Source: Thiomicrorhabdus aquaedulcis (lineage in GTDB: Bacteria > Pseudomonadota > Gammaproteobacteria > Thiomicrospirales > Thiomicrospiraceae). Taken from it: DNA of 64,000 nt. Positions 1,176 through 62,676 of this stretch are shown one piece after another. The DNA lies in contig NZ_AP018722.1 of NCBI RefSeq assembly GCF_004001325.1, positions 930,001 to 994,000 of the forward strand, written 5' to 3'. The first letter of the stretch is position 1; every line of letters starts with the position of its first letter. Both the position numbers and the translations under genes were made by a program. Below the pieces are notes generated by a model, which worked only from the letters and a program-made list of their open reading frames with translations, made no database searches and had not been told where the DNA came from.

Positions 1176-3798
1176 GTTTATTCTTTTTGTTTTGGCGTGG
1201 ATTAGCGCCATTATTCTGTTTTTTCAAATGCCTAGTTTTCCACCGGTTTGGGTGGGCTTGCTGGGGCTGTTGTTAAGCATTGTATTGGGGTCTATGATTT
1301 GGCTTAAACCTTTTAAAAGCCGCTTGACGCTCGGTTATTCAAGGTTAACCATGGCACTTTACAACATTTTTTTGGGTTTTATTATAGGCGGGACGTGGGT
1401 GTTTTGGCAGTCTTTTTTTCAACCGAATGTGGCACCCGAATTTTTGAATCAATCGGTGATGGTATCGGGGCAAATCATCGAGCTGCCGGAGCTGACTAAT
1501 TTAAATTTAAACGGCACTCAAAAGCGCCGAGTTCGTATGACCATGGCGCTTAATTCAATTAGTACAATTCCTTTAAATTTTAAACCTGACCAGGCCTGGT
1601 CAGGTTTAAAACCTATTTTGATTATTAATTGGTATCAAACGCAAGCCGATACCGTGGCATTTTTGGCACCCAAATTAGGCGAAACCTGGCAGTTTAAGGT
1701 TAAGTTGTCGTCTAATCATGCGGCCATTAACCCTGCAGGAATGGATTACGAACGCTGGTTGTTTGGGCAGTATGTAAGCGCCAAAGGCTATGTGCAAGGC
1801 CAGTCACCCAAAAATGCACAAAGTCAGGTGCAAGACCTCTCCCCCATTAATGACCACTACGCAAAGCGAATAGACGATTGGGGAGTGTGGAGTTGGCGCG
1901 CTTCAATGGCCGAGCATTTAAGCATGACCTTGGCGCACAGTCCGTATCAAGGCGTGTATAAAGCCTTGTTGTATGGCGACGACTCGGCTATTGAACCCAG
2001 TGATTGGACGCTGCTTCAAAGCACAGGAACGATTCATTTAATGGCTATTTCGGGTTTGCACATGGCCTTGGTGGCATTTCTTGGAATATTGTTGGCCAAA
2101 GGATTATGGCAAATATGGGCTTACCGATGGACTGGCATGGATTTGCCCATGTTGAGTTTGGTGTTCTCTGTGGGTTTTGCAACAGCCTATTTAGCCATGT
2201 CTGGCGCGGCTATTCCCACCCAAAGAGCTTGGATTATGGTGGTGGCTATTTTGGGTTTTTTGCTTTTGCAACGCCGTTTTCAGCGTTGGCAAGTTTTGGC
2301 CATGGCCGCTTTGCTGGTGGTGATGTGGGATCCTCGGGCTGTGTTGAGTTACGGGTTTTGGTTGTCGTTTGGAGCCGTGGTATTAATTTTTGTGAGTTTA
2401 ACCAGGCCTGGTCAACCTCAACTTGATAATAATAAAGCTGCTAATACCCAAATGGGTAAAGTTCTAAGGTGGTTAAGTGGGTTATATGGTTTTTTAAAAA
2501 TACAAACCGTACTTACTTTAGGGTTAGCACCCGCGTTAATTTGGGCGTTTAGCAGTTTGCCTATTTACAGTTTTTTGGCCAATTTATTGGCCGTGCCACT
2601 GGTTAGCTTTGTGGGTTTACCCGCCTTATTTGGCATTGCTTTACTGAGCGTTATCTCAGTGGAATGGGCGCAGTTTTGGGTGGCGCAATTGGATGTGGTA
2701 TGGGGTGGCTTATGGTGGTTTTTGGAGTTGTTAGCCCAGTTACCCCACAGCAATTGGCGCAATGGTGCGCTGTCGTTTTTGGGCATGCTGGGGCTGTACG
2801 CGTTACTGCTTTTAGGCGTTGTGCTCACCAAACCTGCGCTTAAATGGACGGCGTTACTGGCCTTTGTGCTGGGGTTAGGCGGGGTGTTAAGTGACCCCTT
2901 TGTTAAACGCCCGCATTTTGGCCAGGCCTGGGTCACGGTGTTGGACGTGGGTCAAGGGCAGGCCGTGGTGATTGAAACCCAGCATCATGTTACGGTGGTG
3001 GACACCGGTGCCAAGTGGGGCGATACCATGGACGGGGCTAAAATGGCTATTTTGCCCTATCTTCGGGCGCAAAACTGGTCAAAAATAGACACGCTTATTA
3101 TCAGTCACAGCGATTTAGATCACGCCGGAGGCGTACAAACCTTGTTAGACAGTCTGCCAATTAATCAACTGTTAAGTGGGCAAGCTGAGGTGTTAAACAT
3201 TAAACATGCGTTACCAAAAGCTGCGCCCATGCAAGCAAATCATGCCATATTTAAACCCTGTCTGGCACACCAGGCCTGGTCGGTTGATGGCGTTGATTTT
3301 ACAATGTGGTCGCCGTTTAAGGCCGATTTAGAGAGCGGATTAAGATCCGATAATGACTTGTCGTGCGTGCTTAAAGTGGGGCAAGGGGTTAATTCTGTCT
3401 TGATTCCAGGCGATTTAAGCACCGCGGGCGAAAAACGTCTGTTGGCCACACATTCTGTTGAGGCCGGCACACGCCCAGAAACTGCGCACTTGTTACACGC
3501 GGGTTGGCTTGTGGCGGGGCATCATGGCAGTAAACATTCTACTTCTAGCGATTGGCTGCATAGGGTAAATCCGCACACCGTGGTGTTTTCGGCAGGGTAT
3601 TTAAATCGGTTTAACTTTCCTAATGTTCAAACGGTTGAGCGTATTGGTTCGCGCAATATTCGTTGGTTTAATACAGCGTGCTCGGGGGCGGTGCGCTTTG
3701 AATTAGGTGCGTTGGAAGTGCAAGAGTCGCGAAAAACTCAGCGTAAATGGTATCATCACGCGTGTTTAGACACTCAAAAAGGCGTTTTTTTTGAGTAG
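1159..3798 (+). CDS. comEC: DNA internalization competence protein ComEC/Rec2
   Basis: The 879-aa product has the full ComEC architecture. There are N-terminal membrane helices (about 1-85), a periplasmic OB-like domain (about 95-215), a polytopic Competence domain (about 240-570) with a conserved MAISGLHMAL stretch, and a C-terminal metallo-beta-lactamase-like domain. The last carries VLDVGQGQ (about 594), SHSDLDHAGG (about 650) and HHGSKHS (about 787). ComEC forms the inner-membrane channel for incoming single-stranded DNA in natural transformation. The start has a good ribosome site (AGGAAGG at 1143). Four copies or near copies of the ACCAGGCCTGGT palindrome lie in frame, encoding DQAW (144-147), TRPG (415-418), GQAW (588-591) and HQAW (704-707). 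A comEC gene alone does not show that the organism is competent. Confidence 0.93.
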   Translation: MNFLGMFILFVLAWISAIILFFQMPSFPPVWVGLLGLLLSIVLGSMIWLKPFKSRLTLGYSRLTMALYNIFLGFIIGGTWVFWQSFFQPNVAPEFLNQSVMVSGQIIELPELTNLNLNGTQKRRVRMTMALNSISTIPLNFKPDQAWSGLKPILIINWYQTQADTVAFLAPKLGETWQFKVKLSSNHAAINPAGMDYERWLFGQYVSAKGYVQGQSPKNAQSQVQDLSPINDHYAKRIDDWGVWSWRASMAEHLSMTLAHSPYQGVYKALLYGDDSAIEPSDWTLLQSTGTIHLMAISGLHMALVAFLGILLAKGLWQIWAYRWTGMDLPMLSLVFSVGFATAYLAMSGAAIPTQRAWIMVVAILGFLLLQRRFQRWQVLAMAALLVVMWDPRAVLSYGFWLSFGAVVLIFVSLTRPGQPQLDNNKAANTQMGKVLRWLSGLYGFLKIQTVLTLGLAPALIWAFSSLPIYSFLANLLAVPLVSFVGLPALFGIALLSVISVEWAQFWVAQLDVVWGGLWWFLELLAQLPHSNWRNGALSFLGMLGLYALLLLGVVLTKPALKWTALLAFVLGLGGVLSDPFVKRPHFGQAWVTVLDVGQGQAVVIETQHHVTVVDTGAKWGDTMDGAKMAILPYLRAQNWSKIDTLIISHSDLDHAGGVQTLLDSLPINQLLSGQAEVLNIKHALPKAAPMQANHAIFKPCLAHQAWSVDGVDFTMWSPFKADLESGLRSDNDLSCVLKVGQGVNSVLIPGDLSTAGEKRLLATHSVEAGTRPETAHLLHAGWLVAGHHGSKHSTSSDWLHRVNPHTVVFSAGYLNRFNFPNVQTVERIGSRNIRWFNTACSGAVRFELGALEVQESRKTQRKWYHHACLDTQKGVFFE
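1578..1611. repeat. 34-bp perfect palindrome containing ACCAGGCCTGGT (copy 1)
   Basis: The dispersed 12-bp core at 1589-1600 is extended here by 11 matching bases on each side, giving a gapless self-complementary sequence centred at 1594.5. It lies in comEC and encodes a segment containing D-Q-A-W at residues 144-147. Confidence 0.9.
2401..2412. repeat. ACCAGGCCTGGT palindrome (copy 2)
   Basis: An exact copy inside comEC, read as T-R-P-G (residues 415-418). It is the only copy in this reading frame; other coding copies read QAW or PGLV. Confidence 0.9.
2922..2931. repeat. CCAGGCCTGG near copy of the dispersed palindrome
   Basis: The ten central bases match the dispersed element, with outer bases G and G instead of A and T. 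It reads G-Q-A-W at comEC residues 588-591. Confidence 0.6.
3269..3280. repeat. ACCAGGCCTGGT palindrome (copy 3)
   Basis: An exact copy in comEC, read as H-Q-A-W at residues 704-707 inside the metallo-beta-lactamase-like domain. Confidence 0.9.
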
Positions 3799-3850
3799 TT
3801 TAGTCTTAAATAAGCGCCGTACACAGGTAAAAAGAGGGACATAAAAGACA

Positions 3851-4930: not shown

Positions 4931-4932
4931 TA

Positions 4933-5133: not shown

Positions 5134-5156
5134 AACTTATTGTAGAACCTATTATT

Positions 5157-8211: not shown

Positions 8212-8233
8212 GTTTAACCAGGCCTGGTCAAAC
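8212..8233. repeat. ACCAGGCCTGGT palindrome (copy 5) with extended inverted repeat
   Basis: The exact core at 8217-8228 is flanked by GTTTA and CAAAC, giving a 22-bp inverted repeat with one mismatch per arm. It lies between two convergent genes. It could form a hairpin, but no clean T tract follows on either strand, so a terminator role is doubtful. Confidence 0.85.
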
Positions 8234-12410: not shown

Positions 12411-13669
12411 TTAAATTTTAAACACGGGGCGATTTTTCTTGCCTTGTGCATTTTGCGATTTTTTACCGAGTGGTTTTTTTTCTGCCGTGCGGGTAAGTTG
12501 CACCATCACTTCGGCGTGAGTGGTGTGGGCAAACATGTCTACCAGGCCTGCTTGGGTTAAACGGTAACCTTGTTTTTCAAGCTCTTTAATGTCGCGAATT
12601 AAGGTCGCGGCGTTGCACGACACATAAACAATAATGGGCGCGTTCAGTTGTCCCAGTATTTTACACAGCTCAAACGCCCCTTGACGACCGGGGTCTAATA
12701 ATACACTTTGGTAGGTTTTTTTGTAAAACCACGGCATTTGTTCTACATCGGTAAACAGGTCGGCTTTATGAAATGTGGCGTTATTCATTTTATTAAGTTG
12801 GGCGTTGTGTTGCGCTCTGGTCACCAATGGTTTTTCGCCTTCAACGCCTATTACCTGTTTTACGTGTTGCGCAATGGGCAGTGTAAAGTTGCCAATGCCG
12901 CAAAAAAGATCTAGCACCGTATCGTTTGGCGTGAGCTTGAGCCAGTCGATTGCTTGGTTGACCAGGCGCGCATTGAGTTCGCCATTAATTTGAATAAAGC
13001 CGTCGGCTGAAAACTCAAGCGTTAATTCATTTAAACGATAGTGAGGGATTTGTTCGCTGGGCGCGAGTCCAAACACGCCGTTGTCGCCCTGGGCGATGTT
13101 AATTTCTTTGTAAGCGCGACTGGCTTGTTCTAACAGTTGGGGTTTGTGGGCTTGAATGGCTTGGTTAAGCTCTGCGCTAAGAATGGGGCAGTGCTCAATA
13201 TCGACCAGTTCAACCGACTCTTTTTGTCTAAACCCTAAGCGCGCTACTTTGTCTTTTTGCTAATGGCTAAGCCCAGGCGCGCGCGACGACGATAGCCTTG
13301 GTCTTGGCCAAAAATGGGCTCGGCGATGTGGGCGTGGGTGCTGTCAACCGCTTGGGTAAGGCGCGTGATAAAGTTTTGGTTTTTCCAAAAACGTTGGGCT
13401 TCAATGCTTAAATGCTGTAATTGACAGCCACCGCATTGCGCGTAATGCGCGCAAAATGGCGCAACACGTTGTGGTGAAGGTTCAATAATAGACAGCAATT
13501 GCGCTTCGTCGTATTGGTCGCTTTGCACGCGAACTTTGGCGTTGACTACGTCGCCGGGTACTGCGTCGCTAATAAAAATGGCTTTGCCTTCAAAGCGGGC
13601 AATGCCGCGACCGTCGTGACTTAAGCCCTCAATGGTGAGTGATGTTAAAGTTTGGTTAAGGTGCGTCAT
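12411..13669 (-). CDS. rlmD: 23S rRNA (uracil(1939)-C(5))-methyltransferase RlmD, frameshifted
   Basis: The N-terminal part starts at MTHLNQTLTSL and has a TRAM domain (IEGLSHDGRGIARFEGKAIF) and the iron-sulfur cysteines CAHYAQCGGCQLQH. The C-terminal part has SAM motifs VLDLFCGIGNFTLPIA, LDPGRQGA and the catalytic cysteine in YVSCNAATLIRD. The frame breaks after AISKK; restoring one A in a run of five (plus-strand 13254-13258) gives KDKVARLGFRQKESVELVDIEHC without interruption. The full length would be about 420 aa, normal for RlmD (formerly RumA). The chosen ATG is used instead of an upstream TTG that lacks similarity. The shift is probably a sequencing error. Confidence 0.88.
12541..12552. 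repeat. ACCAGGCCTGCT near copy of the dispersed palindrome
   Basis: The same one-mismatch variant as at 12309, here in rlmD and read on the minus strand as A-G-L-V. Confidence 0.6.
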
Positions 13670-13732: not shown

Positions 13733-13744
13733 ACCAGGCCTGGT
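13733..13744. repeat. ACCAGGCCTGGT palindrome (copy 6, intergenic)
   Basis: An exact copy flanked by TTG and TAA between the queE stop and the rlmD start, both on the minus strand. Confidence 0.9.
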
Positions 13745-14546: not shown

Positions 14547-15962
14547 ATGTCAGCCAAAACGTTATACGATAAATTGTGGGATGCGCACGTGGTGCGTCAA
14601 GAAGACGATGGAACTGCGTTAATTTATATAGACCGTCAATTGCTGCACGAAGTCACCTCACCGCAAGCTTTTGAAGGCCTGCGCATGGCCAATCGCAAGC
14701 CGTGGCGCATTAACGCCAACTTGGCGACGCCAGACCATAACGTGCCCACCACCGATTTAACCGGCGGTGTTGAAAGCATTACCGACCCTGTGTCGCGTAT
14801 TCAAGTGGTTACCTTGGGTATGAACGCACGTGAATTTGGCATTACCGAATACGCCATGGGCGATTCGCGTCAGGGCATTGTGCATGTGGTGGGGCCAGAA
14901 GCGGGCGCTACCTTGCCGGGCATGACCGTAGTGTGTGGTGATTCGCATACGGCCACGCACGGCGCATTGGGGGCGTTAGCGCACGGCATTGGTACTTCTG
15001 AGGTAGAACACGTTTTGGCCACGCAGTGTTTGCTGCAAAAGAAAATGAAAAACATGCTGATTCGAGTCGACGGTCAATTGCAATCGGGTGTCACGCCAAA
15101 AGATGTGGTTTTGGCCATTATCGGTAAAATTGGTACGGCCGGTGGTAATGGCCACGCCATCGAGTTTGGCGGGCAAGTGTTTCGCGATATGTCTATTGAA
15201 GGACGTATGACCGTTTGCAACATGGCGATTGAAGCCGGAGCGCGCGTAGGCTTAGTGGCGGTGGATGAAAAAACCATAGAATACGTTAAAGGTCGTCCTT
15301 TAGCGCCAACCGCCGAGCAGTGGGATGCTGCAGTGGCCTCTTGGCAAGATTTGCATTCGGACGCGGATGCCCTGTTTGACAAAGTAGTAGAGTTGGATGG
15401 TTCAAGCATTCAACCACAAGTGTCGTGGGGCACTTCGCCCGAAATGGTAATGGACGTAAACGGCTTTGTGCCTAATCCAGACAAAGAGACCGATGCGGTA
15501 AAAGCCAGTGGCATTCGTCGCGCGCTAAATTACATGGGGCTTAAAGCCGACATGGCCATTAAAGACATTCCAGCGCAATACGTCTTTATTGGCTCGTGTA
15601 CCAATTCGCGCATTGAAGATTTGCGCGCGGCAGCGGCCGTGTTAAAAGGCAAAAAAATTGCCAACAGCGTTGAATTAGCGTTGGCGGTACCCGGATCAGG
15701 CCTGGTTAAATTGCAAGCCGAGCAAGAAGGTTTGGATAAGATTTTTATGGACGCTGGTTTTGAATGGCGCAACCCAGGTTGTTCTATGTGTTTAGCCATG
15801 AACGCCGACCGTTTGCCCGAGGGTAAACATTGCGCCTCCACATCCAATCGTAACTTTGAAGGACGACAGGGTGCTGGCGGTAGAACGCATTTGGTTAGCC
15901 CGCAAATGGCGGCCGCAGCGGCCATTGCCGGTCATTTTGTGGATGTTCGTGATTATTTATAA
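14547..15962 (+). CDS. leuC: 3-isopropylmalate dehydratase large subunit
   Basis: The 471-aa product starts at [16 protein letters not shown]; an in-frame ATG 10 codons upstream overlaps the promoter -10 area and is unlikely. It binds a 4Fe-4S cluster through the conserved cysteines in [10 protein letters not shown] and in NPGCSMC, and with LeuD isomerises 2-isopropylmalate to 3-isopropylmalate in leucine synthesis. The DHNVPT and [10 protein letters not shown] motifs are also present. Length matches LeuC (about 466). It heads the leuC-leuD-leuB cluster, and LeuD starts 23 bp downstream. Confidence 0.96.
15695..15706. repeat. ATCAGGCCTGGT near copy of the dispersed palindrome
   Basis: One mismatch (T for C at position 2). 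It lies in leuC and reads S-G-L-V at residues 384-387, a conserved part of the protein, so it may be a constrained or ancestral form. Confidence 0.5.
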
Positions 15963-24380: not shown

Positions 24381-25829
24381 ATGAATAAACCAACGCATCA
24401 ATCGAGTTTGTCGCAATGGATTGAGTGGTTACTCAATTTACACGCTAATGAGATTGATTTGGGCATTGAGCGGGTTAAAAAAGTCGCGCTGTGCATGCAA
24501 ATTAACAAACCAGCACCTTTGGTTATAAGCGTAGCGGGCACCAACGGAAAAGGTTCTAGCGTTGCTATCGCCGTGTCTATTTTAAGTGCGGCGGGTTATC
24601 AAGTCGGTGCTTACACCTCACCGCACATTGAACGGTTTAACGAACGTATTCAGGTCAATGGCCAATGTGTCAGCGACAAAAAAATTGTAGATGCGTTTGT
24701 AAGAATAGAAGCGGCTAGACAGGGTGTTAAGCTTACCTATTTTGAGTTTGCCACATTGGCCGCTTTAGTCATTTTTAAGGATATGGCATTGGATGTGGTG
24801 GTGCTGGAAGTGGGCTTGGGTGGTCGTTTAGATGCCGTAAACCTGGTGGACGCTGATGGTGCATTAATAACAGCCATTGATATTGATCATATTGATTGGC
24901 TGGGCAGTGATCGCAGTGTGATTGCCACCGAGAAAGCTGGCATTATGAGAACTGGCAAGTTGGCGGTTTGTTCTGATCCTAAGCCCCCTGAAAGTTTAGC
25001 TCTCTACGCCAAAAAGCACGATGTTGCGTTAAAGCAACTCAATCAAGATTTTAGTTTTACATTAAATGACCAGGCCTGGTCATTTATAACAGCAGATTCG
25101 TTTTTTGATACCAAAAACTATTCTGAATCTACTCTCATTAATTTACCAATGCCTGCGTTAAAAGGTGCTTTTCAGCTCGCTAACGCCGCAGGTGTTGTAG
25201 CGCTATTACAGCTGTTTGGTGCCCGTTTGCCGGTGAGCGAAGCGTCTATTAGGCTCGGTTTGCAAAGGGTTAAACATCCGGGGCGCTTGCAGTCACTTAA
25301 AGTCGGTCAAGCTAATTGGTTGATTGATGTTGCACATAATCCACAATCTGCTCAGGCTTTGGCCGTCTTTTTGGCTAATATAACAGACGCTTCAGTAAAC
25401 GATTTAACCGATACTGCAGTAGATGCTTCTGCAACTCACCAGGCCTGGTTAAATTCTTTAAATACTTTAAATTCTAAAATGTGCTCAACTCAATTGAGTT
25501 CTGCACCACATCCTGCACAACGTGTGGCTATTTTTTCGGTGCTGGCAGATAAAGATGCATTGCCAATGATTGCCGTTATGGCTCCGCATATTCAAACCTG
25601 GTATGTGGCCGATTTAGCCATAGCACGCGCTAGCCAGACGGCTGATATTGTCAATTGGCTTCATCAAGCGGGTGTTGATAATAAAAATATTGTGACATGC
25701 ACATCGATTAGTGATGCAGTAAAGCAGGTGTTGAGCCAAAATTTATCTGATGTGGTAGTTTGGGGGTCATTTTTTACCGTATCTCAAACGTATGCAGCCT
25801 TGAGGCTTCTGGGCAAAATGGATGGATGA
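24381..25829 (+). CDS. folC: Bifunctional dihydrofolate/folylpolyglutamate synthase
   Basis: The 482-aa Mur-ligase-like enzyme adds glutamate to dihydropteroate and folates. The P-loop is SVAGTNGKGSSVA (about 50-62), followed by GAYTSPHIERFNERI and VVVLEVGLGGRLDAVN. AAAAGAAGG before the ATG is a good ribosome site. It is longer than typical FolC (about 420-430 aa). A polar, low-complexity insertion at about residues 335-380, between FLAN and RVAIFSVLADKD, contains one palindrome copy (HQAW), and a second copy reads DQAW at about 230. The end overlaps dedD by 8 bp. Confidence 0.94.
   Translation: MNKPTHQSSLSQWIEWLLNLHANEIDLGIERVKKVALCMQINKPAPLVISVAGTNGKGSSVAIAVSILSAAGYQVGAYTSPHIERFNERIQVNGQCVSDKKIVDAFVRIEAARQGVKLTYFEFATLAALVIFKDMALDVVVLEVGLGGRLDAVNLVDADGALITAIDIDHIDWLGSDRSVIATEKAGIMRTGKLAVCSDPKPPESLALYAKKHDVALKQLNQDFSFTLNDQAWSFITADSFFDTKNYSESTLINLPMPALKGAFQLANAAGVVALLQLFGARLPVSEASIRLGLQRVKHPGRLQSLKVGQANWLIDVAHNPQSAQALAVFLANITDASVNDLTDTAVDASATHQAWLNSLNTLNSKMCSTQLSSAPHPAQRVAIFSVLADKDALPMIAVMAPHIQTWYVADLAIARASQTADIVNWLHQAGVDNKNIVTCTSISDAVKQVLSQNLSDVVVWGSFFTVSQTYAALRLLGKMDG
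25063..25086. repeat. 24-bp perfect palindrome containing ACCAGGCCTGGT (copy 7)
   Basis: The exact core at 25069-25080 is extended by six matching bases on each side. It lies in folC and reads N-D-Q-A-W-S. Confidence 0.9.
25438..25449. repeat. ACCAGGCCTGGT palindrome (copy 8)
   Basis: An exact copy in folC reading H-Q-A-W (353-356), in the middle of a family-atypical polar insertion. Confidence 0.9.
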
Positions 25830-30443: not shown

Positions 30444-30455
30444 ACCAGGCCTGGT
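30444..30455. repeat. ACCAGGCCTGGT palindrome (copy 9, intergenic)
   Basis: An exact copy in the rlmE-ftsH gap, starting 24 bp after the rlmE stop. No T tract follows it. Confidence 0.9.
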
Positions 30456-33490: not shown

Positions 33491-34825
33491 ATGAATAAAG
33501 AGAAAAAATATTTTGGTACTGACGGTATTCGTAATCGTGTTGGTCAAGGAATGATCAAGCCTGATCAAATCTTAAAGTTAGGCTGGGCAACAGGAAAAGT
33601 CATGCGGGCACGTGGTGAAACCAAGGTGATGATTGGTAAGGATACCCGCATTTCGGGTTATATGTTTGAATCTGCACTCGAGGCTGGGTTTATTGCGGCA
33701 GGTATTGATGTTATGTTGCTTGGTCCTATGCCTACTCCTGCGGTAGCGTATTTAACCCAAACGTTTCATGCTGACGCGGGCATTGTTATCAGTGCGTCGC
33801 ACAATCCGCATTACGATAATGGGATAAAATTTTTTTCATCCACGGGCAAAAAAATCAGTGATGACATAGAGCATGCTGTTGAACTTGCCTTTGAGGAAGA
33901 GATGGATGTGGTGTTGTCTGAAAACTTGGGCAAAGCCAAGCGTATTGAGGATGCGGCAGGGCGCTACATCGAGTTTTGTAAAAGCACTTATACGGGTCGC
34001 GTTAAGTTAGATGGGTATAAAATAGCGATTGACTGTTCTCATGGGGCGACCTATCACATAGCGCCACATGTGTTTACTGAATTGGGTGCGCAAGTAGTCA
34101 CTATGGGGGTACAGCCCAACGGTATTAATATTAACCAACATTGCGGCGCTACCGACGTTAAGGCGTTACAAGCCCTGGTATTGAGTGAGAAAGCTCATTT
34201 AGGCATTGCCTTTGATGGCGATGGTGATCGGGTTATCATGATTGACTCATTGGGTAATGTTGTTGATGGTGATTTAATTTTATATATTTTAGCCACTCAT
34301 AGTTCCAGTCCTGTTGAGGGAGTGGTAGGTACGGTTATGAGTAATTTAGGTGTTGAGCTTGCTCTTAATAAAAAAGGTATCGCGTTTGTACGTTCGGCAG
34401 TTGGTGATCGCTACGTTATGGAAAAACTAGTAGAAAACAATTGGTGTTATGGGGCTGAAGCATCTGGACACGTGCTGTGTTTAAATAAAACGACAACAGG
34501 TGATGGAATAGTTGCGGCATTGCAAGTATTAAGCGCTATGGTAGATAAGCAAAAGTCTTTAATGGAAATGACCGCAGAGGTTGAGGTGTATCCGCAGGTT
34601 CTAAAGAATGTACGAGTCCTAAATAATCATGGTGTAAGTGATAATGTTGTTTTAAAACAAGCTATTATCGAAGTTGAGTCCGAGTTGCTAGATAGAGGTA
34701 GAGTATTAATTAGAGCCTCTGGCACAGAACCGCTGATTAGAGTAATGGTAGAAGGTGCTGATAAAGAGCAGGTAGAAAAAGTAGCGGAAAGGCTAGTAAG
34801 CGTGGTTACTTCAGAATTTTCATAA
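33491..34825 (+). CDS. glmM: Phosphoglucosamine mutase
   Basis: The 444-aa alpha-D-phosphohexomutase interconverts glucosamine 6- and 1-phosphate for UDP-GlcNAc, feeding peptidoglycan and lipid A. The phosphoserine loop is [17 protein letters not shown] (about 97-113), the magnesium loop is [10 protein letters not shown] (about 243), and the sugar loop is EASGHVLC. The C-terminal [15 protein letters not shown] binds phosphate. It starts 32 bp after folP, so they are probably one transcript. Confidence 0.97.
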
Positions 34826-40849: not shown

Positions 40850-42964
40850 ATGGTAAAAGTTGAGATAAACGGTCAGGTTATTGAAGCGCATGAAGGTGAC
40901 ATGTTGATTGATGTTGCTGACGGTGCACACATTTCTATTCCCCGTTTCTGCTATCACAAAAAGCTTTCTATTGCTGCCAACTGCCGTATGTGTTTAGTAG
41001 AAGTAGAGGGCGCATGGAAGGCATTGCCTGCTTGTGCTACACCTGTTACAGACGGCATGAAAGTTCATACCAAATCAGCCAAGGCAATCGCTGCACAAAA
41101 ATCAGTAATGGAATTTTTGTTGATCAACCATCCTTTGGATTGCCCTATTTGCGACCAAGGCGGTGAGTGTGAGTTGCAAGATGTGTCTATGGATTATGGT
41201 GATGATGTATCTCGCTACCATGAGGCAAAGCGTGTGGTTAGTGATCGCAATACCGGCTCGCTAATCAAAACCGAAATGACTCGTTGTATTCATTGCACAC
41301 GTTGTGTTCGTTTTGGCCAAGAAATTGCCGGAATGATGGAATTGGGTGCAACAGGTCGAAGCGAGTGGATGGAGATAGGTACATACATTGAAAAGTCGAT
41401 TGATTCTGAAATGTCAGGCAATATGATTGATTTGTGTCCTGTAGGTGCTTTAACCTCAAAGCCATTTCGCTACACCGCGCGTTCTTGGGAGTTAAAAGCT
41501 CACAACGCAATAGCACCACACGATTCCATAGGTTCACATATTATTATTCATTCAAAAAATAATGAAGTTAAACGTGTCGTGCCGCGCGAAAATGAAGCAA
41601 TAAATGAAGTTTGGTTGTCAGATCGCGACCGTTTTTCTTATGAGGCTATTAATTCCGAACAGCGTTTAACTCAACCAATGATTAAGCAAAATGGTTTTTG
41701 GAATGTGGTTGATTGGGAAACGGCTTTGCAGTTTGCGGCAGAGGGATTACAGGGTTTAATAGCTGAGTCGGTCAACGATATTGGTGTTTTAGCGGGAGCT
41801 AATTCGACATTAGAAGAATTGCATTTATTACAAAAGCTGGCTCGTGGACTGGGAATAGAAAATCTTGATCATCGTCATAGACAATCTGACTTTAGTTTAG
41901 ACGCATTAGGTTTCAATCAACCTACGTTAACCATTTCTTTGGCCGAGGTTGAGACTTTAAACTCAGTATTAATGGTGGGAACTTATTTAAGAAAAGAGTT
42001 GCCAATCCTAAATCATCGTGTGCGAAAAGCGGTTTTAAATGGTGCTAAGGCTTTTGTTGTTAATCCAGAGTCTTTAGATTATAACTATAAACTCGCCAAT
42101 ACGCATTCCGAATTAGGCATGATTAAAGAACTGTCTGGGCTTGCCAAAGCTGCACTAGGATTAAATAACAAGACTGACCAGGCCTGGTTAAATACCATTC
42201 AACCAACAGATCAACATATTAAGATGGTCGAAAATTTAAAACAGTCAGAACAATCGGCTTTATTTTTGGGGCAGTTGGCACAATCTCACACCGATTACAC
42301 AGTGATTCAAAAGTTGGCGGCTATTATTGCAACGGAAACTCAATCATCCTTGAGTATTTTGCCAATGAGTGCCAATGAGGTAGGTGCGCATTTAGTACGC
42401 TTTGTTCCGCGCAATGGTTTAAACAGCATGCAAATGATACAAGCTGAAATGAAAGGCTTTATTAATTTGAACATTGAGCCAGAATCTGACTTTACACAAG
42501 GAAATTTAGCCCTTGCCGCAATGCAAAAAGCGCAGTTTGTCATTAATTTAACCGCTTTTGACAGTGCAGCACAGCGTGATTATGCCAACGTACTGCTTCC
42601 TATTGCTACTTTTGCAGAAACCGCTGGTACGTTTGTTAACGCAAATGGACTAAAGCAATCATTTAAGATGTCTGTTGAACCAAAAGGTGATGCAAAGGCC
42701 GCTTGGAAAGTGTTGAGAGTCTTTGCTAATGTATTGAATGTAGACGGTTTTGAGTATACGCACACCAATGAAGTGTTACGCGAAGTGCTAGATAATGTAG
42801 CAACTCAAGTTGATTTTTCAAAGGCAATTTGTATTTTGCCTATGCAAAATAATGATGCAATCGTGCAGCGTGTTTCGCCGTATGCCATTGATTCATTAGT
42901 GCGTAGAGCGGCTTCTTTACAAGCCACCCCGGACGCAAATTTTGCCACAATGGAGAGAGGTTAA
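40850..42964 (+). CDS. nuoG: NADH-quinone oxidoreductase subunit G
   Basis: The 704-aa subunit has an N-terminal 2Fe-2S ferredoxin domain (NCRMCLVEVEG), the His-containing cluster motif DCPICDQGGECELQD and a CIHCTRCVRFGQEIAG cluster, then a molybdopterin-oxidoreductase-like C-terminal region without clear cofactor motifs. It is much shorter than E. coli NuoG (about 908 aa), resembling the alphaproteobacterial/mitochondrial 75-kDa type. The start MVKVEINGQ is used. One palindrome copy encodes TDQAW (442-446) in a variable segment. Confidence 0.95.
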   Translation: MVKVEINGQVIEAHEGDMLIDVADGAHISIPRFCYHKKLSIAANCRMCLVEVEGAWKALPACATPVTDGMKVHTKSAKAIAAQKSVMEFLLINHPLDCPICDQGGECELQDVSMDYGDDVSRYHEAKRVVSDRNTGSLIKTEMTRCIHCTRCVRFGQEIAGMMELGATGRSEWMEIGTYIEKSIDSEMSGNMIDLCPVGALTSKPFRYTARSWELKAHNAIAPHDSIGSHIIIHSKNNEVKRVVPRENEAINEVWLSDRDRFSYEAINSEQRLTQPMIKQNGFWNVVDWETALQFAAEGLQGLIAESVNDIGVLAGANSTLEELHLLQKLARGLGIENLDHRHRQSDFSLDALGFNQPTLTISLAEVETLNSVLMVGTYLRKELPILNHRVRKAVLNGAKAFVVNPESLDYNYKLANTHSELGMIKELSGLAKAALGLNNKTDQAWLNTIQPTDQHIKMVENLKQSEQSALFLGQLAQSHTDYTVIQKLAAIIATETQSSLSILPMSANEVGAHLVRFVPRNGLNSMQMIQAEMKGFINLNIEPESDFTQGNLALAAMQKAQFVINLTAFDSAAQRDYANVLLPIATFAETAGTFVNANGLKQSFKMSVEPKGDAKAAWKVLRVFANVLNVDGFEYTHTNEVLREVLDNVATQVDFSKAICILPMQNNDAIVQRVSPYAIDSLVRRAASLQATPDANFATMERG
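42177..42188. repeat. ACCAGGCCTGGT palindrome (copy 10)
   Basis: An exact copy in nuoG read as D-Q-A-W (443-446), in the poorly conserved C-terminal part of the subunit. Confidence 0.9.
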
Positions 42965-49022: not shown

Positions 49023-49044
49023 TTCGGATAGGTGAGTTAACAAT

Positions 49045-50496
49045 ATGAATTTTGTCATTCCAGATTTTGCTCCAGCCATTCCCGAAATGGTGTTATTGGC
49101 CTTAACCTCATTTATTTTAGTGGCCGACACCTTTTGGGCAAAACGCTCTCAGTTTGCAACTTACTATGCAACCCAAATTGCATTGGTAGTTGTGGCTGTT
49201 CTTATATTAATGAGTTTTTCGACCACTCAAATTATTACCTTTGATGGTAGTTTTGTTAGAGACAGTTTTGCTGATATTTTAAAGCTCTTTGTTTTGGTTA
49301 TATCGATTGGAATTTTTGTATTTTCTAAAGAATATTTGCTTCAACACAAGTTTTTTAGTGGAGAGTTTTTTGTTTTAGGCCTGTTTGGTGTGTTGGGTAT
49401 GTTTGTGATGATTTCATCCTACAACTTCATCACGCTCTATCTTGGGCTAGAAATAATGTCCTTATCCATGTATGCCATGGTCGCCATGAGAAAAGATTCA
49501 GGGGCCGCCGTTGAAGCTGGAATGAAGTATTTTGTGTTGGGCGCATTAGCGACTGGTATGCTGTTATATGGTTTTTCTATGATTTACGGTGCAACCGGAG
49601 AAATTGGTTTTGCACAAGTATCAGAGGTTATCTCTAGCGGTAATGCCGATGGTGTCGTTTTGGCTTTTGGCGTAGTGTTTATTGTTATTGGTTTGGCGTT
49701 TAAGTTGGGTGCGGTGCCTTTTCATATGTGGATGCCAGACGTATACCAAGGAGCACCCACAGCCGTTACCTTGTATTTAGGAACTGCCCCAAAAATTGCT
49801 GGCTTTGCTATCGTCTATAGATTGTTGGCCGAGGCTCTACCAGGCCTGGTAGAAGAGTGGCAGTCATTAATTATTATGCTGTCTATACTTTCTATGGTGT
49901 TAGGTTCTATTGCGGCCATTGTGCAAGACAATTTAAAACGTATGTTGGCGTATTCGGGTATTGGGCATATTGGGTTCTTATTGTTGGGGGTTATAGCCGC
50001 CACACCTGATGGTTATTCGGCCTCTATGTTTTATGTGATTGTGTACGCAATAACTGGTTTAGCTGGTTTTGGGATGATTGTTGCGCTGTCGCGTACTGGC
50101 AATGAATTTGACCGTGTCGTTGATTTTAAAGGCTTAAATGCACGAAATCCATGGTTAGCGGTAATGATGTTGATTGTTATGTTTTCTATGGCAGGTATCC
50201 CACCGTTTATTGGTTTTTGGGCAAAAATTATTGTGATTGAAGAGGTCATTAAAGCAGGCTTTACGTGGATTGCTGTTGTTGCAGTAATTACAGCTGTTAT
50301 TAGTGCCTACTATTATTTGCGCGTGGTTAAAGCGATGTACTTTGATGAACCCGAAGATAACACTAAAATTGAACCGGTTAGCGGCAGTTTAAATTGGACG
50401 GTAAGTTTTGTTGCGCTTTCTTTGCTAGTATTGGGTTTAATGCCAAGTTCATTGATTAACTTGTGTTACCAGAGCATTAATTCACTGGCCTTATAA
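49045..50496 (+). CDS. nuoN: NADH-quinone oxidoreductase subunit N
   Basis: The 483-aa antiporter-like subunit has about 14 helices and the signatures LGLEIMSLSMYAMVAMRK, LGAVPFHMWMPDVYQGAPT and LKRMLAYSGIGHIGFLL. A palindrome copy encodes LPGLV (265-269) in a loop between helices. It is the last nuo gene and is followed by a strong intrinsic terminator. Confidence 0.97.
   Translation: MNFVIPDFAPAIPEMVLLALTSFILVADTFWAKRSQFATYYATQIALVVVAVLILMSFSTTQIITFDGSFVRDSFADILKLFVLVISIGIFVFSKEYLLQHKFFSGEFFVLGLFGVLGMFVMISSYNFITLYLGLEIMSLSMYAMVAMRKDSGAAVEAGMKYFVLGALATGMLLYGFSMIYGATGEIGFAQVSEVISSGNADGVVLAFGVVFIVIGLAFKLGAVPFHMWMPDVYQGAPTAVTLYLGTAPKIAGFAIVYRLLAEALPGLVEEWQSLIIMLSILSMVLGSIAAIVQDNLKRMLAYSGIGHIGFLLLGVIAATPDGYSASMFYVIVYAITGLAGFGMIVALSRTGNEFDRVVDFKGLNARNPWLAVMMLIVMFSMAGIPPFIGFWAKIIVIEEVIKAGFTWIAVVAVITAVISAYYYLRVVKAMYFDEPEDNTKIEPVSGSLNWTVSFVALSLLVLGLMPSSLINLCYQSINSLAL
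49839..49850. repeat. ACCAGGCCTGGT palindrome (copy 11)
   Basis: An exact copy in nuoN read as P-G-L-V (266-269), in a short extramembrane loop. Confidence 0.9.
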
Positions 50497-55116: not shown

Positions 55117-56797
55117 TTAAAACCATCTTGTTACGACCCAAACCAATACGCCAACGCTGATGACGTAAAACAGCATGGGCAGGAGCGTGTAGCGAATAAT
55201 CTGCCCCTCTTTACCCACTAAGTTAACCACTGAAGCCGCCGCCACAACATTGACCACGCAAATCATATTGCCGGCGTTTGCACCCAGCATTTGCAAGGCC
55301 AAAATCCAGTGAGTTGGCAGGCCAGTGGCCAGCGCAGTAGACTCTTGAAATTGCGCAAACATCATATTAGAAAACGTCGCCGATCCGGCAATAAAACTCC
55401 CCAGTGCGCCCACAAACGGTGCGGCTAAAGGCCAGTTGCCTTCAAATGTGGTCGCGGCTAAAGCGGCCAGCTCCATGGGCATTGACAATAATTGCGCCTC
55501 ATTTACCCCAGAATTAAGAAAAATTCGCACCATAGGCACCGAAGCACCTAATGCAATCACCGTGGGCAACATCACTTTAAAAGACTGCCACCAGGCCTGG
55601 TTAGCTTGTTTTAACGGCACTTTATGCAGCCACAAGGTGATGAGCGCCACCACAATAAATAGGCTGCCGGGCAAGTACAACGGCACCAGTTTGGCCGATA
55701 TATCGGTGGCTAAAATCGCCGAAAATTCCAGCGACACGGCGTTAAGTAAGGATTTAAAAGGTAAAAATCTAGGCGACTTAACACTAAAATAACGGCCACC
55801 AAAGCATACGGTAACCAGGCCTGGTAAAGTGACAGATGATGATGTTTATGTGGCTCCATCGCCAAACACGATAATGCCGGTGATTTTTCACACCCTTGTA
55901 TTTTCACCAGGCCTGGTGAATGTTTGTTTAGCACGGGTGTTAAACACTCGGGATGATCAGACTCAAACAACCACACGTTTTTAGGCGTTAAAAACCCTTT
56001 TTTGGCGGCCACCACAGTAATTGCCAGGCCTGCTAAACCGCCTAAAATGGCCGGAAACTCTGGTCCTAAGGTTTTAGCCACCAACAACGCCGGAATCGTA
56101 AACGAAAATCCACCCAATAACGCAAATTTCCACGCGCCCAAACCCTCGCGCCAACTTTTATTTTCACCAAAAAACGCGTTAAAATCAGCACCATAATCAA
56201 CGGTAAAAAACTCGCCACCACCACATCAATAGTGCTGGCGCTCACCGCAATGTGCATAATTTCGTCATAACTCGGGTTGACCAAACCTTGACCCATGCCC
56301 ACAATCACCGGCGTGCCCACGGCACCATACGACACCGCGGCGCTGTCGGCAATTAATGCCAACACCACCGCCGCCATCGCCGGAAAACCCAGCGCTAATA
56401 ACAAGGGCGCTACAATGGCCGCAGGGGTTCCAAAACCGCTTGCGCCTTCTAAAAAGGCCACAAACAACCAGCCGACAATCACCGTTTGTACGCGACGATC
56501 GGGCGAAATGCGAGTAAATCCTTCGCGAATCACCTCAAGCGCTCCACTGACTTTTAAAGTGTTTAGCAGCACAATCGCACCAAAGACGATGATTAAAATA
56601 GACGCAGCAATGACCCAGCCTTCTAAAATCGACGCTGCAATTTGAACCCCAGGCACCTGCCAAACCCACCAAGCCAAAGCGGTTACCAAAGCCAGGCTTA
56701 ACGCCATAGCTCGACTGGCAGGCATGCGTAAAATCACCAAAAAAAACAATACGGCCAGCACTGGCATTGCGGTGGTTAATGCTTGCACAAATGTCAT
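55117..56797 (-). CDS. L-lactate/glycolate permease (LldP/GlcA family), two frameshifts
   Basis: Three overlapping frames together make a normal permease of about 560 aa with some 12-14 helices. The N-terminal frame has [20 protein letters not shown] and [17 protein letters not shown], the C-terminal one [15 protein letters not shown] and [20 protein letters not shown], all LldP signatures. Restoring one base in the A run at 56169-56174 gives [16 protein letters not shown], and one in the run at 55763-55767 gives [17 protein letters not shown]. This family moves lactate or glycolate with protons. The nearby glcDEF genes make glycolate likely. Three exact and one near palindrome copies lie within 450 bp of this gene. 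Confidence 0.88.
55590..55601. repeat. ACCAGGCCTGGT palindrome (copy 12)
   Basis: An exact copy in the permease gene, read on the minus strand as N-Q-A-W in a loop between helices. Confidence 0.9.
55814..55825. repeat. ACCAGGCCTGGT palindrome (copy 13)
   Basis: An exact copy in the permease gene, read on the minus strand as Y-Q-A-W just before a helix ([10 protein letters not shown]). Family members often have AWLPY here. Confidence 0.9.
55906..55917. repeat. ACCAGGCCTGGT palindrome (copy 14)
   Basis: An exact copy, extended to an 18-bp palindrome by TTC and GAA. It is read on the minus strand as P-G-L-V in a hydrophilic loop of the permease. Confidence 0.9.
56023..56034. repeat. GCCAGGCCTGCT near copy of the dispersed palindrome
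   Basis: Two outer positions differ from the consensus, with the ten-base centre mostly kept. It is read on the minus strand as A-G-L-A in the permease. Confidence 0.5.
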
Positions 56798-56950: not shown

Positions 56951-57691
56951 ATGAAAAAACGCGTGTTAATAACCGGTGGCAATAAAGGCATTGGTTTAGC
57001 ATTGACTCAACTTTTTTTACAAAAAACCGAGTTCGATATTGTGGTGGTGGCGCGTGATTTTAGTGGGTTTAAGATGCTGTCTTGGGCGCAAACACCGCGC
57101 ATTCAGTGCATAGAGTACGATTTAACCGACTTAGACAATCTACCAGGCCTGGTCAACACCGTGGGCGACATTGATGTATTGGTCAATAACGCAGGATTAT
57201 TGCAACCATTAACTTATGATGCCTATCCTATCGCAAATAGGGACTATTCGTTAAAACTGAATATTCAAGCACCGGTTAAGTTAATGGAGTTGTTTGGTGC
57301 GCGGATGGTGCAACGCGCTCAAATAAATGCGCTTCAATCATCGGCGTTAAGGGGACGCATGGTTAATAATGCCTCGATTGCTGGGCAAATTGGTCACCCT
57401 GATATTTGGTATGGTATTGCCAAAGCGGGCTTAATTAACGCGACCAAAAGTTTTTCAAAAGCCTTTGCAGGTCAGGTGATTGTGAATGCCGTAGCGCCCA
57501 GTCCAACCGCCACCGATATGTTAGATTCGATTCCGCAACATCGTCAACAAGCGTTTTTAAAAAAAACCATCAGCCAGCGCTTTGCGACCGCACAAGAGGT
57601 GGCACAAACTTTATTTTGGTTGGCCATCGACTCACCCGAATACATTAACGGGGTGTGCATTGATATTAACAACGGTGCGTTTCCAAGGTAG
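56951..57691 (+). CDS. Short-chain dehydrogenase/reductase family protein
   Basis: The 246-aa Rossmann enzyme has the cofactor loop GGNKGIGLALTQ (about 8-19), VNNAGLLQPL, a catalytic serine in NNASIAGQ and Y-x3-K in YGIAKAGL, then a C-terminal NGVCIDINNGAFPR in the usual position. It oxidises or reduces an unknown alcohol/ketone using NAD(P). AGGAGA precedes the ATG. A palindrome copy reads LPGLV at 64-68. It is followed by an intrinsic terminator. No link with the flanking glycolate genes can be proved. Confidence 0.9.
   Translation: MKKRVLITGGNKGIGLALTQLFLQKTEFDIVVVARDFSGFKMLSWAQTPRIQCIEYDLTDLDNLPGLVNTVGDIDVLVNNAGLLQPLTYDAYPIANRDYSLKLNIQAPVKLMELFGARMVQRAQINALQSSALRGRMVNNASIAGQIGHPDIWYGIAKAGLINATKSFSKAFAGQVIVNAVAPSPTATDMLDSIPQHRQQAFLKKTISQRFATAQEVAQTLFWLAIDSPEYINGVCIDINNGAFPR
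57142..57153. repeat. ACCAGGCCTGGT palindrome (copy 15)
   Basis: An exact copy in the SDR gene read as P-G-L-V (65-68), just before the segment leading to VNNAG. Confidence 0.9.
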
Positions 57692-61479: not shown

Positions 61480-61493
61480 CCGAACCTTTACTT

Positions 61494-62676
61494 ATGCAAA
61501 CTCAAATTCCTGTCGATTTATTAAAAACCGCCCACGGCCAAACCGCCGATAAGATTTTGCGTTCATGCGTGCATTGCGGTTTTTGTCTGTCGGCCTGCCC
61601 AACCTACGGCTTATTGGGCGACGAGTTGGATTCGCCGCGTGGACGTATTTATTTAATTAAGCAGGCGTTAGAAGGCGGTGAGGTAACGGCCAATTCTCTA
61701 ACCCATCTGGATCGTTGCTTAACCTGCCGTTCGTGCGAAACCACCTGTCCGTCGGGAGTCGAGTACGCCCACTTGCTGGATATTGGCCGAGAGTTTATTG
61801 AAGCCAAAAGCCCGCGCCCTCGCTTGCAGCAGTTTATCCGTTGGGGTTTGCGCAAAACCCTCACCACGCCCTTTTTGTTTAATACTCTAACCACTTTATG
61901 GCCGTGGGCTAAGCACAGTACCGTCAACAAGCCGTTACAAACTTTAGTGCGGCAGGCCAAAGCGCATACGCATGTTAAGCAAGTTTTGTTAATCAGCGGT
62001 TGTGTACAACCCGCCTTAGCGCCCAATATAAATTTGGCGACCATTCATGTGTTGCATAAATTGGGCATTGGTGTAATCGAAACCCCACAGGTGCAATGTT
62101 GCGGTGCGGTTGAGCATCATTTGTCGGGTTCTGAGGACGCATTAAAAAAATAAAACGCAATATTGATGCCTGGACACACGAATTAAATCACGGCGTTGAG
62201 GCGATTATTTCTAACACCAGTGGCTGTGGGGTGATGATTAAAGAGTACGCTCACCTGCTTAAGCACGACCCGTTGTACGCCAAAAAGGCCAAGCGTGTGG
62301 TTGAAAAGACCATGGATATTTCGGAGTATTTGGTCACCCAAGATTTAAGCCAGTTTAAGCGCGATACCCAGCAAAAAATTGTATTTCAATCGCCATGCAC
62401 CTTGCAACACGGTCAAAAGCTACCAGGCCTGGTCGAAAAAACCTTGGTGTCTTTAGGCTTTCAGGTCAGCCCGGTGGTGGACAGTCATTTGTGTTGCGGC
62501 TCGGCCGGAACCTACTCTATTTTTCAAAAGAGTTGTCCATGCAACTGCGTGACAACAAGCTTAATCATTTATTAAAAGACCAACCGCAGGTGATTGTAAC
62601 CGCCAATATTGGCTGTTTAATGCACTTGCAAAATGGTACGACAACCCCTGTAAAACATTGGATTGAGTTACTGTAA
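61494..62676 (+). CDS. glcF: Glycolate oxidase iron-sulfur subunit GlcF, two frameshifts
   Basis: The N-terminal part has two 4Fe-4S motifs, [14 protein letters not shown] and [17 protein letters not shown]. Two CCG-type domains follow: [18 protein letters not shown], then the second set [11 protein letters not shown]. The frame breaks twice. One A added at the run 62144-62150 continues [14 protein letters not shown], and one at 62526-62529 continues [16 protein letters not shown] to the TAA at 62674. The corrected length is about 394 aa (usual about 400). It carries electrons from GlcDE to quinone. Both shifts are probably sequencing errors. A palindrome copy encodes LPGLV near 62423. Confidence 0.9.
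62422..62433. repeat. ACCAGGCCTGGT palindrome (copy 16)
   Basis: An exact copy in glcF read as P-G-L-V between the two C-terminal cysteine clusters. Confidence 0.9.

What the first reader, a model, noticed from the sequence alone, without database searches (positions are those of the whole stretch)
1578..62433. Dispersed 12-bp palindrome ACCAGGCCTGGT, 16 exact copies in 64 kb
Exact copies start at 1589, 2401, 3269, 6334, 8217, 13733, 25069, 25438, 30444, 42177, 49839, 55590, 55814, 55906, 57142 and 62422. One-mismatch copies are at 12309, 12541, 15695 and 28884, with looser ones at 2922 and 56023. A random 12-mer is expected about 0.004 times here. Each copy contains CCAGG and CCTGG (two CCWGG sites) around AGGCCT. 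Being symmetric, it has no strand orientation, unlike Neisseria or Pasteurellaceae uptake sequences. It behaves more like cyanobacterial HIP1. Possible roles are a methylation or chromosome-organising site, a protein-binding array, or a mobile palindrome; none is shown by the sequence.
Basis: partly seen in the sequence, partly recalled or inferred. Interest (0 to 1): 0.9.

Follow-up and report, generated by a model that had tools for sequence, protein, structure and literature searches.

The report
Candidate DNA-uptake tag in sulfur bacteria
Hundreds of copies of a short mirror-image DNA word are scattered over this sulfur-oxidising bacterium's chromosome, and related species carry their own variants, which makes the word most likely a self-recognition tag for taking up DNA from kin, a kind of tag known in two other bacterial families but not yet tested here.

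Summary
All 16 exact copies are where stated. The genome has 718 in 2.54 Mb, against 0 for the reversed word. The core CAGGCCTG occurs 236-1173 times in 32 of 62 family genomes and at most 74 times in the other 30. Six of those 30 carry another abundant word: ACCGGCCGGT (1025 copies in one genome), or the non-palindromic AACAGGCCGGGT, CCAGGTTGGG or CCAGGCTGGG, the last two behind an A-tract. Asymmetric words are about equal on both strands and sometimes form close inverted pairs. Copies are enriched between genes, scarce on the conjugative plasmid (5 against 28 expected) and frequent in comEC, where 29 of 53 sites lie at gap-free columns and so look like substitutions. 21 of 32 core-rich genomes have no C5-methylase hit. 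The best explanation is a family-wide DNA uptake sequence system with dialects, like Neisseriaceae DUS and Pasteurellaceae USS, but with a palindromic majority word. Uptake is untested, no receptor was found, and competence genes other than comEC were not checked. No paper in the searched library holds the 12-mer or pairs 'uptake sequence' with Thiomicrospira.

The parts
1159..3798 (+). comEC/rec2, the DNA-internalisation channel gene; holds three exact copies and one core copy of the word
   Evidence: TIGR00361 E 3e-99, PF03772 E 2.3e-55; core sites counted
1589..1600 (.). exact ACCAGGCCTGGT, in comEC; same alignment column used by 14 of 31 genomes, in a poorly alignable region
2401..2412 (.). 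exact copy, in comEC; of 31 genomes found only in this one, in a stretch that is a gap in many relatives
2921..2932 (.). two-mismatch copy holding the core CAGGCCTG, in comEC; core at the same column in 8 of 31 genomes
3269..3280 (.). exact copy, in comEC; same column carries the core in 12 of 31 genomes, the others have gap-free homologous codons
6334..6345 (.). exact copy, intergenic
8217..8228 (.). exact copy, between convergent genes, 5 bp after the upstream stop codon
12309..12320 (.). one-mismatch copy (outer two bases)
12541..12552 (.). one-mismatch copy (outer two bases)
13733..13744 (.). exact copy, intergenic
15695..15706 (.). one-mismatch copy (outer two bases), in leuC
25069..25080 (.). 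exact copy, in a folC-like gene
25438..25449 (.). exact copy, in a folC-like gene
28884..28895 (.). one-mismatch copy (outermost base), in an O-succinylhomoserine sulfhydrylase gene
30444..30455 (.). exact copy, intergenic, upstream of ftsH
34168..34179 (.). two-mismatch copy without the core; possibly a chance match
42177..42188 (.). exact copy, in nuoG
49839..49850 (.). exact copy, in nuoN
55590..55601 (.). exact copy, in a lactate-permease-like ORF
55814..55825 (.). exact copy, intergenic
55906..55917 (.). exact copy, intergenic; flanks extend the palindrome
56023..56034 (.). two-mismatch copy holding the core CAGGCCTG
57142..57153 (.). exact copy, in a short-chain dehydrogenase gene
62422..62433 (.). 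exact copy, near the right end of the window

Best explanation
The word is the local dialect of a DNA uptake sequence: a short tag, spread over the chromosome, that a surface DNA receptor (probably a type IV minor pilin or a similar protein) prefers during natural transformation, so that cells favour DNA of their own kind. The family's commonest word is a dyad of two half-sites built around CAGG|CCTG. Some lineages rewrote one half and kept the other with its A-tract, giving an oriented word. Biased uptake followed by recombination then fills the chromosome with the receptor's preferred word through ordinary point mutations, while conjugative DNA stays poor in it. SHOWN: abundance, core, dialects and their near-exclusive distribution, both-strand balance, intergenic enrichment, plasmid depletion, gap-free columns for 29 of 53 comEC sites, and presence of comEC in 56 of 62 genomes.
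For: 718 copies, reversed control 0. Core CAGGCCTG 236-1173 copies in 32 of 62 genomes and 0-74 in the other 30, reversed control at most 36. Dialects: ACCGGCCGGT 1025 in G026 and at most 15 in the other 61 (reversed control 1 in G026, up to 19 elsewhere); CCAGGTTGGG 364 in G008 and 400 in G013, at most 7 in the other 60; AACAGGCCGGGT 482 in G022 and 275 in G036, at most 8 in the other 60; CCAGGCTGGG 18 in 120 kb of G007 (not counted genome-wide). Asymmetric words on the two strands: 242/240, 137/138, 195/205, 166/198. Their consensus is an A-tract plus core of about 18 bp; Haemophilus USS also has a core and AT-tracts (PMC7811141, passages). Close inverted pairs, starts 20-31 bp apart: 4 in 120 kb of G008, 3 in 100 kb of G013, 1 in 120 kb of G007, and six 22-25 bp apart in the cut-off G036 listing; DUS dialects show inverted pairs too (PMC3630211, section 11). 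62 of 132 sites are intergenic against 14.2 expected, densest between convergent genes. The conjugative plasmid C2 has 5 copies against 28.3 expected, P 9e-8. comEC holds 67 cores in 31 core-rich genomes against 27.5 expected. 29 of 53 comEC sites lie at five columns without gaps in the core, the kind of test used for USS (PMC1626085, passages). The word of G022 lies inside a clade of AACAGGCCTGTT-like genomes.
Against: No uptake experiment for this family turned up, and the searches made did not show natural transformation described for it: none, none, one search listed 15 of 657 papers, and the one listed paper with both a genus name and 'natural transformation' has the phrase only in its reference list; one search found no mention in PMC6501319. 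No receptor was identified: the GspH/FimT family hit only 3 of 62 genomes, and the strongest pilin cluster of the own genome is type II secretion. ComEC is present in 5 of 6 motif-less genus relatives and in motif-less G004, so it does not track the motif; only motif-less G050 lacks it. A PilT/PilQ/ComEA/DprA inventory was not made. A palindromic uptake sequence is not known to me; the nearest precedent is overlapping dyads in Simonsiella (PMC3630211). Even spacing is not established: 20-kb counts are underdispersed (P 2e-4), but gaps between the first 100 sites fit a random scatter (P 0.18). One phage contig carries 3 copies in 11 kb. comEC enrichment had no matched control gene; type II secretion loci carry 0-3 cores per 3 kb in four core-rich genomes and 9 in 16 kb of the own genome, so comEC may be less special than its P value suggests. 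17 of 53 comEC sites lie in poorly alignable or gapped regions and 7 were not displayed. No inverted pairs were found in 80 kb of G022.
Confidence: 0.66

Rival explanations
1. A chromosome-tagging site read inside the cell: a Chi-like recombination site, or the site of a nucleoid or segregation protein that is family-specific and drifts in specificity.
For: Dispersed on the chromosome and depleted on the plasmid. The palindromic majority word with symmetric flanks fits a dimeric DNA-binding protein. Dialects would follow changes in that protein.
Against: Asymmetric dialects are about equal on both strands, 242/240, 137/138, 195/205 and 166/198. In single-contig genome G008 the plus-strand density of the first 1.006 Mb is 63.6 per Mb against 66.6 for the genome (64 rows counted by hand, computed), so there is no Chi- or KOPS-like polarity there. 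Absence of the word from seven relatives in 60-100 kb each suits a dispensable trait better than segregation.
Confidence: 0.17
2. A HIP1-like palindrome created or kept by a DNA methyltransferase and methyl-directed repair, as proposed for cyanobacteria.
For: Palindromic, highly repeated, one-mismatch copies concentrated at the outer bases (41 of 47 at positions 1-2); a bias to first and last bases is reported for HIP1 (PMC4390886, abstract). The own genome has one C5 methylase (C1:743279).
Against: 21 of 32 core-rich genomes have no PF00145 hit, and 13 of 32 have neither PF00145 nor PF01555; two of the 21 (G048, G057) are under 90% complete. Five relatives use asymmetric words. Other methylase families were not searched.
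Confidence: 0.1
3. A transcription-terminator hairpin or REP-like repeat.
For: 26 of 62 intergenic copies extend into a stem at least 4 bp longer (19 of 70 genic copies do too), and 18 of 62 also have a T-rich tail, against 3 of 70 genic copies. Density is highest between convergent genes.
Against: 70 of 132 copies lie inside reading frames, and few of these look like terminators. The same double use is reported for DUS/USS (PMC13020248, passages), so it does not explain the copies by itself.
Confidence: 0.04
4. A mobile palindromic element.
For: Many dispersed copies; the comEC copy at 2401 sits where many relatives have a gap, and the shared column 720 is in a gapped region.
Against: At five comEC columns (1740, 1977, 2490, 2856, 3195; 29 of 53 sites) carriers and non-carriers align without gaps in the core. 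Copies share only the word and graded flanks, no fixed element.
Confidence: 0.02

Closest known systems
DNA uptake sequence (DUS) dialects of Neisseriaceae (PMC3630211: abstract and two sections read)
   Same: Many copies of a 10-12-mer; several dialects with a shared core, usually one per genome; some family members without any; inverted pairs that look like terminators; point-mutated near copies. Simonsiella has overlapping dyad pairs.
   Different: Unrelated sequence; the majority word here is itself a palindrome; copy number lower (here up to about 1,200 against about 900-6,000); near copies are fewer than exact ones here, more numerous in DUS; function and receptor not shown; a ComP orthologue was not sought by sequence.
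Uptake signal sequence (USS) of Pasteurellaceae (PMC1626085 and PMC7811141: passages read)
   Same: Core with AT-tracts; many genomic copies; origin by substitution was tested there in the same way; two subclade types.
   Different: USS is not palindromic; here asymmetric words are the minority. In the asymmetric words here the A-tract lies about 4 bp from the core, on one side only.
HIP1 of cyanobacteria (PMC4390886: abstract, part 1 of section 3.4 and passages read)
   Same: Highly iterated palindrome, lineage-dependent replacement words, one-off copies at the outer bases.
   Different: No C5 methylase hit in 21 of 32 core-rich genomes; asymmetric replacement words exist; longer word with flanking preferences.
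Chi sites (recalled)
   Same: Short, over-represented, clade-specific words.
   Different: No strand polarity seen here; palindromic majority form.

Membership tests
DNA uptake sequence (DUS/USS) | Tagged DNA is taken up preferentially by competent cells | not testable with these tools
   needs an uptake assay; no report found in the searches made
DNA uptake sequence (DUS/USS) | Most over-represented word of its length, hundreds to thousands of copies | tested here: met
   718 copies, control 0; most frequent 12-mer of the window and of a 464-kb sample
DNA uptake sequence (DUS/USS) | Family-specific dialects sharing a core, one dominant word per genome | tested here: met
   four words counted over 62 whole genomes; G007 word from a 120-kb sample; shared elements CAGG or CGG; 17 genomes undetermined
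DNA uptake sequence (DUS/USS) | Both orientations equally common | tested here: met
   asymmetric dialects 242/240, 137/138, 166/198, 195/205
DNA uptake sequence (DUS/USS) | Intergenic enrichment and inverted pairs | tested here: met
   62 of 132 intergenic against 14.2 expected (own genome only); pairs in G008, G013, G007 and G036, none in 80 kb of G022; position of the pairs relative to genes not tested
DNA uptake sequence (DUS/USS) | Scarce on conjugative elements (for DUS: PMC7371117, seen in a listing only) | tested here: met
   one plasmid, C2: 5 against 28.3 expected; Rep3, TraN, TraG, TraH, TraI_2
DNA uptake sequence (DUS/USS) | Sites arise by substitution, not insertion | tested here: met
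   comEC only: 29 of 53 sites at five columns without gaps in the core, 17 in gapped or poorly alignable regions, 7 not displayed
DNA uptake sequence (DUS/USS) | Even spacing along the chromosome | tested here: inconclusive
   P 2e-4 for 20-kb counts but P 0.18 for gaps
DNA uptake sequence (DUS/USS) | Competence machinery present, with a receptor that matches the dialect | tested here: inconclusive
   ComEC in 56 of 62; receptor not found; other competence genes not tested
HIP1-type palindrome | Companion methyltransferase for the word | tested here: not met
   PF00145 without a hit in 21 of 32 core-rich genomes, PF01555 also without in 13 of 32; the own genome has one PF00145 hit; other methylase families not tested
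HIP1-type palindrome | Replacement words are palindromes | tested here: not met
   asymmetric replacement words in five genomes
Chi/KOPS-type oriented site | Strand bias along each replication arm | tested here: not met
   plus-strand density in the first 1.006 Mb of single-contig G008 equals the genome mean; position of the origin assumed at coordinate 1
REP/mobile palindrome | Extragenic and inserted | tested here: not met
   70 of 132 genic; gap-free orthologous columns for 29 of 53 comEC sites

The most novel reading that the evidence does not exclude
This is a third, independently evolved family of DNA uptake sequences, in free-living sulfur chemolithoautotrophs. Its ancestral word is a palindrome that the receptor reads as a dyad of two overlapping half-sites. 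At least twice (AACAGGCCGGGT; CCAGGYTGGG) lineages turned it into an oriented word by rewriting one half and sharpening the A-tract of the other, and several lineages dropped the tag altogether.
Probability: 0.5. Interest if true: 0.87.

Novelty: new variant of a known kind. Interest (0 to 1): 0.78.

Why it matters
The passages read here name only two families with self-specific uptake words, Neisseriaceae and Pasteurellaceae (PMC7811141, PMC13020248), which I recall as animal-associated. A further family with a palindromic word and several dialects, among cultivable sulfur-oxidising autotrophs, would allow independent tests of why uptake specificity evolves and how receptor and genome words change together. 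It would also suggest a simple way to make these organisms genetically tractable by putting the right word on transforming DNA.

Tried and rejected
Even spacing as an argument: the sampled 20-kb counts were underdispersed, but the gap test on the first 100 sites was not, so I do not use it. Receptor search: PF12019 hit only 3 of 62 genomes. PF07963, searched in 18 genomes only, gave pilin-like genes in carriers and non-carriers alike, and the best own-genome cluster is type II secretion, so presence or absence did not point to a receptor. A tblastn of the own GspE against the fetched family stretches found GspE copies and one plasmid-borne relative, nothing that I could call PilB or PilT; the stretches cover only part of each genome. 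Strand polarity of the G022 word looked possible from the cut-off listing (and 16 against 8 for the 9-mer in 80 kb), but whole-genome counts are 242/240, so I rejected it. G030 has several enriched 10-mers; they sit together in two stretches, with a few stray copies elsewhere, and so look like a local repeat, not a dispersed word. Methylation: C5 and N4/N6 families only; types PF02384, PF02086 and others were not searched. Mobile element and duplicated segment: rejected. The order-wide search returned the same 62 genomes as the family, so it added nothing. The first comEC alignment lost loci read on the wrong strand and was redone. A ComEC scan of named genomes gave no confirmed relative. A megablast of window 50497-56000 against plasmids found nothing. 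The comEC tree is a quick tree with long branches and open forks; its 6 state changes are a rough figure. Dialects of 17 genomes without the core were not determined (G001-G003, G014, G016-G020, G024, G037-G040, G043-G045).


Full report
WHAT WAS CLAIMED AND CHECKED. The window holds 16 exact copies of ACCAGGCCTGGT at the stated places, plus the near copies; 23 matches with up to two mismatches against 1.63 expected from shuffles. The whole genome (chromosome contig 2,440,205 bp, and contig C2 of 96,830 bp) has 718 exact copies and none of the reversed control word. In a sample of 20 chromosome stretches of 20 kb plus the window (464 kb) there are 132 copies, with each stretch carrying 3-8.

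ANATOMY. Beyond the 12-mer the flanks prefer T at the second base out (80%) and the third (54%), mirrored on the other side, with a weaker A/T preference 9-12 bases out. Of 47 one-mismatch copies in the sample, 41 differ at the outer two bases, 0 at the third and 6 at the central three positions of the half. The hard core is therefore CAGGCCTG. Reading-frame offsets are uneven: 33, 28 and 9 for PGLV, QAW and TRPG.

PLACE IN THE GENOME. With simple non-overlapping ORFs (89% coverage), 62 of 132 copies are intergenic against 14.2 expected; density is 2.91 per kb between convergent genes, 1.33 and 1.00 between co-directional genes and 0.78 between divergent genes. 26 of 62 intergenic and 19 of 70 genic copies have a stem at least 4 bp longer; 18 of 62 intergenic but 3 of 70 genic ones also have a T-rich tail as intrinsic terminators do. 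The second contig is a conjugative plasmid (Rep3 initiator, TraN, TraG, TraH, TraI_2 among 10 proteins scanned). It has 5 copies where chromosome density predicts 28.3 (P 9e-8).

DISTRIBUTION. The family search covered 62 genomes (the order holds the same 62). 41 of 62 have at least one copy of the 12-mer; 27 have 84 or more. CAGGCCTG is present 236-1173 times in 32 of 62 and 0-74 times in 30 of 62; the reversed control never exceeds 36. A scan of the genome-contig collection (84,980 species by its description; records near the window's own genome may be left out) for TTTGACCAGGCCTGGTCAAA gave 54 stretches: Thiomicrorhabdus arctica, Hydrogenovibrio halophilus, Hydrogenovibrio sp. SC-1, Thiomicrospira sp. 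WB1, a Thiomicrorhabdus MAG and one gammaproteobacterial MAG. The window's genus is then probably Thiomicrorhabdus (inference).

DIALECTS. Genomes poor in the core were read for their own frequent words. G026 has ACCGGCCGGT, 1025 copies, at most 15 in the other 61; the reversed control is 1 in G026 and up to 19 elsewhere. G008 and G013 have CCAGGTTGGG, 364 and 400 copies, at most 7 in the other 60; the full words are AAAATCTGCCAGGTTGGG and AAAATCTACCAGGTTGGGG. G007 has AAAATCTGCCAGGCTGGGG, 18 copies of its core in 120 kb. G022 and G036 have AACAGGCCGGGT, 482 and 275 copies, at most 8 in the other 60; the G022 consensus is AAAACTCAACAGGCCGGGT. Genomes G023, G041, G046 and G047 keep the core but prefer A or G at the second base. 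Seven genomes showed no dispersed word in 60-100 kb each: G004, G028, G029, G030, G042, G050, G051; enriched 10-mers of G030 belong to a local repeat. The other 17 were not determined. The asymmetric words are about balanced over the strands (242/240, 137/138, 166/198, 195/205). They also occur as inverted pairs with starts 20-31 bp apart: 4 in G008, 3 in G013, 1 in G007, six (22-25 bp) in the cut-off G036 listing, and none in 80 kb of G022.

EVOLUTION OF SITES. In a codon alignment of comEC from 31 genomes (protein identity to the window's gene 33-47%), 53 sites (50 CAGGCCTG, 3 CCGGCCGG) fall on 15 columns, several of them shared: 14, 12, 8 and 5 genomes at columns 720, 2856, 2490 and 3195. 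At 1740, 1977, 2490, 2856 and 3195 (29 of 53 sites) non-carriers have homologous codons without gaps in the core, so those sites arose by substitution. Columns 720 and 726 (16 sites) lie in a poorly alignable region, where the word itself may steer the alignment; the window's site 2401 lies where many relatives have a gap; seven single-genome sites were not displayed. In 31 core-rich genomes comEC holds 67 cores against 27.5 expected at genome density; 2 of 31 have none. Sites at shared columns are not independent and no matched control gene was run, so the P value (1e-10) overstates the case. Type II secretion loci carry 0-3 cores per 3 kb in four core-rich genomes, and 9 in 16 kb of the own genome. 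On a quick comEC tree of 51 genomes, 42 of them with a determined state, the states need 6 changes. The palindromic core spans several genera, the CCAGGYTGGG genomes form one clade, and G022 lies within the clade of G023, G041, G046 and G047. Comparing G022 (AAACTCAACAGGCC-GGGT) with G046 (AAACCGAACAGGCC-TGTT) suggests that one half was kept and the other rewritten (inference; the G046 consensus rests on 4 copies, each read on both strands).

METHYLASES. PF00145 has no hit in 21 of 32 core-rich genomes; PF01555 has none either in 13 of 32. The window's own genome has one C5 methylase, so methylation there cannot be excluded, but it is not a shared requirement.

COMPETENCE. ComEC is found in 56 of 62 genomes, including motif-less ones; of the seven motif-less genomes only G050 lacks it. 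No receptor was found. Other competence genes were not searched.

LITERATURE. No paper in the library holds the 12-mer, and none holds 'uptake sequence' together with 'Thiomicrospira'. The combined search listed 25 of 157 papers, and none of the 25 had both an uptake-sequence term and a genus name. One search listed 15 of 657 papers; the one with both a genus name and 'natural transformation' has the phrase only in its references. TerminatorNet (PMC13020248, passages) names only Neisseriaceae and Pasteurellaceae for uptake sequences. Frye et al. (PMC3630211; abstract and two sections) describe dialects, a shared core, members without the word, inverted pairs that suggest terminators and, in Simonsiella, overlapping dyad pairs read as a hint of dimeric recognition. 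Elhai (PMC4390886; abstract, part of one section and passages) ties HIP words to methylases. Most subscription papers, and bioRxiv preprints, are outside the library, so priority is not settled.

VERDICT. The word is a genome-wide, dialect-forming tag found in about half or more of the family's genomes. It meets most indirect marks of an uptake sequence that could be tested, fails two marks of HIP1 and shows no Chi-like polarity; function and receptor are unproven. Confidence in the uptake reading is 0.66.

Noticed in passing
L281-L285 (second contig, 96,830 bp): A conjugative plasmid with Rep3 initiator and F-type Tra genes; it also carries a secretin, a type II/IV secretion ATPase and a DUF285 repeat protein in one cluster (L282:1917-9726).
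   Followed up: partly
L302:6464-16567: A chromosomal cluster of unusually large proteins with pilin-like N-termini beside a 547-aa ORF without an NCBIfam hit; function unclear.
   Followed up: partly
L147 (viral contig, 11,034 bp): A phage contig (terminase, portal, primase) with three exact copies of the word; four other viral contigs of the same sample also carry it.
   Followed up: partly
L001-L002 (own genome) and L029-L030 (G007): 12-mers repeated about 24-28 times within 40 kb point to a long repetitive stretch in each genome.
   Followed up: no
L044 and L206 (G030): Several unrelated 10-mers recur within 9.6-16 kb of L044 and 1.2-13.8 kb of L206, as in a large modular repeat.
   Followed up: partly
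L052 (G045) and L048 (G039): Frequent G-runs of 9-10 bases in G045 and a few in G039, which may be phase-variable tracts or assembly artefacts.
   Followed up: no
L313 (G022): The ComEC reading frame of G022 is only 594 aa against about 880 in relatives; it may be truncated or broken.
   Followed up: no
window 36036-36120 and 40835-50496: tRNA-Leu(gag) and a NADH dehydrogenase (nuo) operon part that carries only two exact copies of the word in about 10 kb.
   Followed up: no
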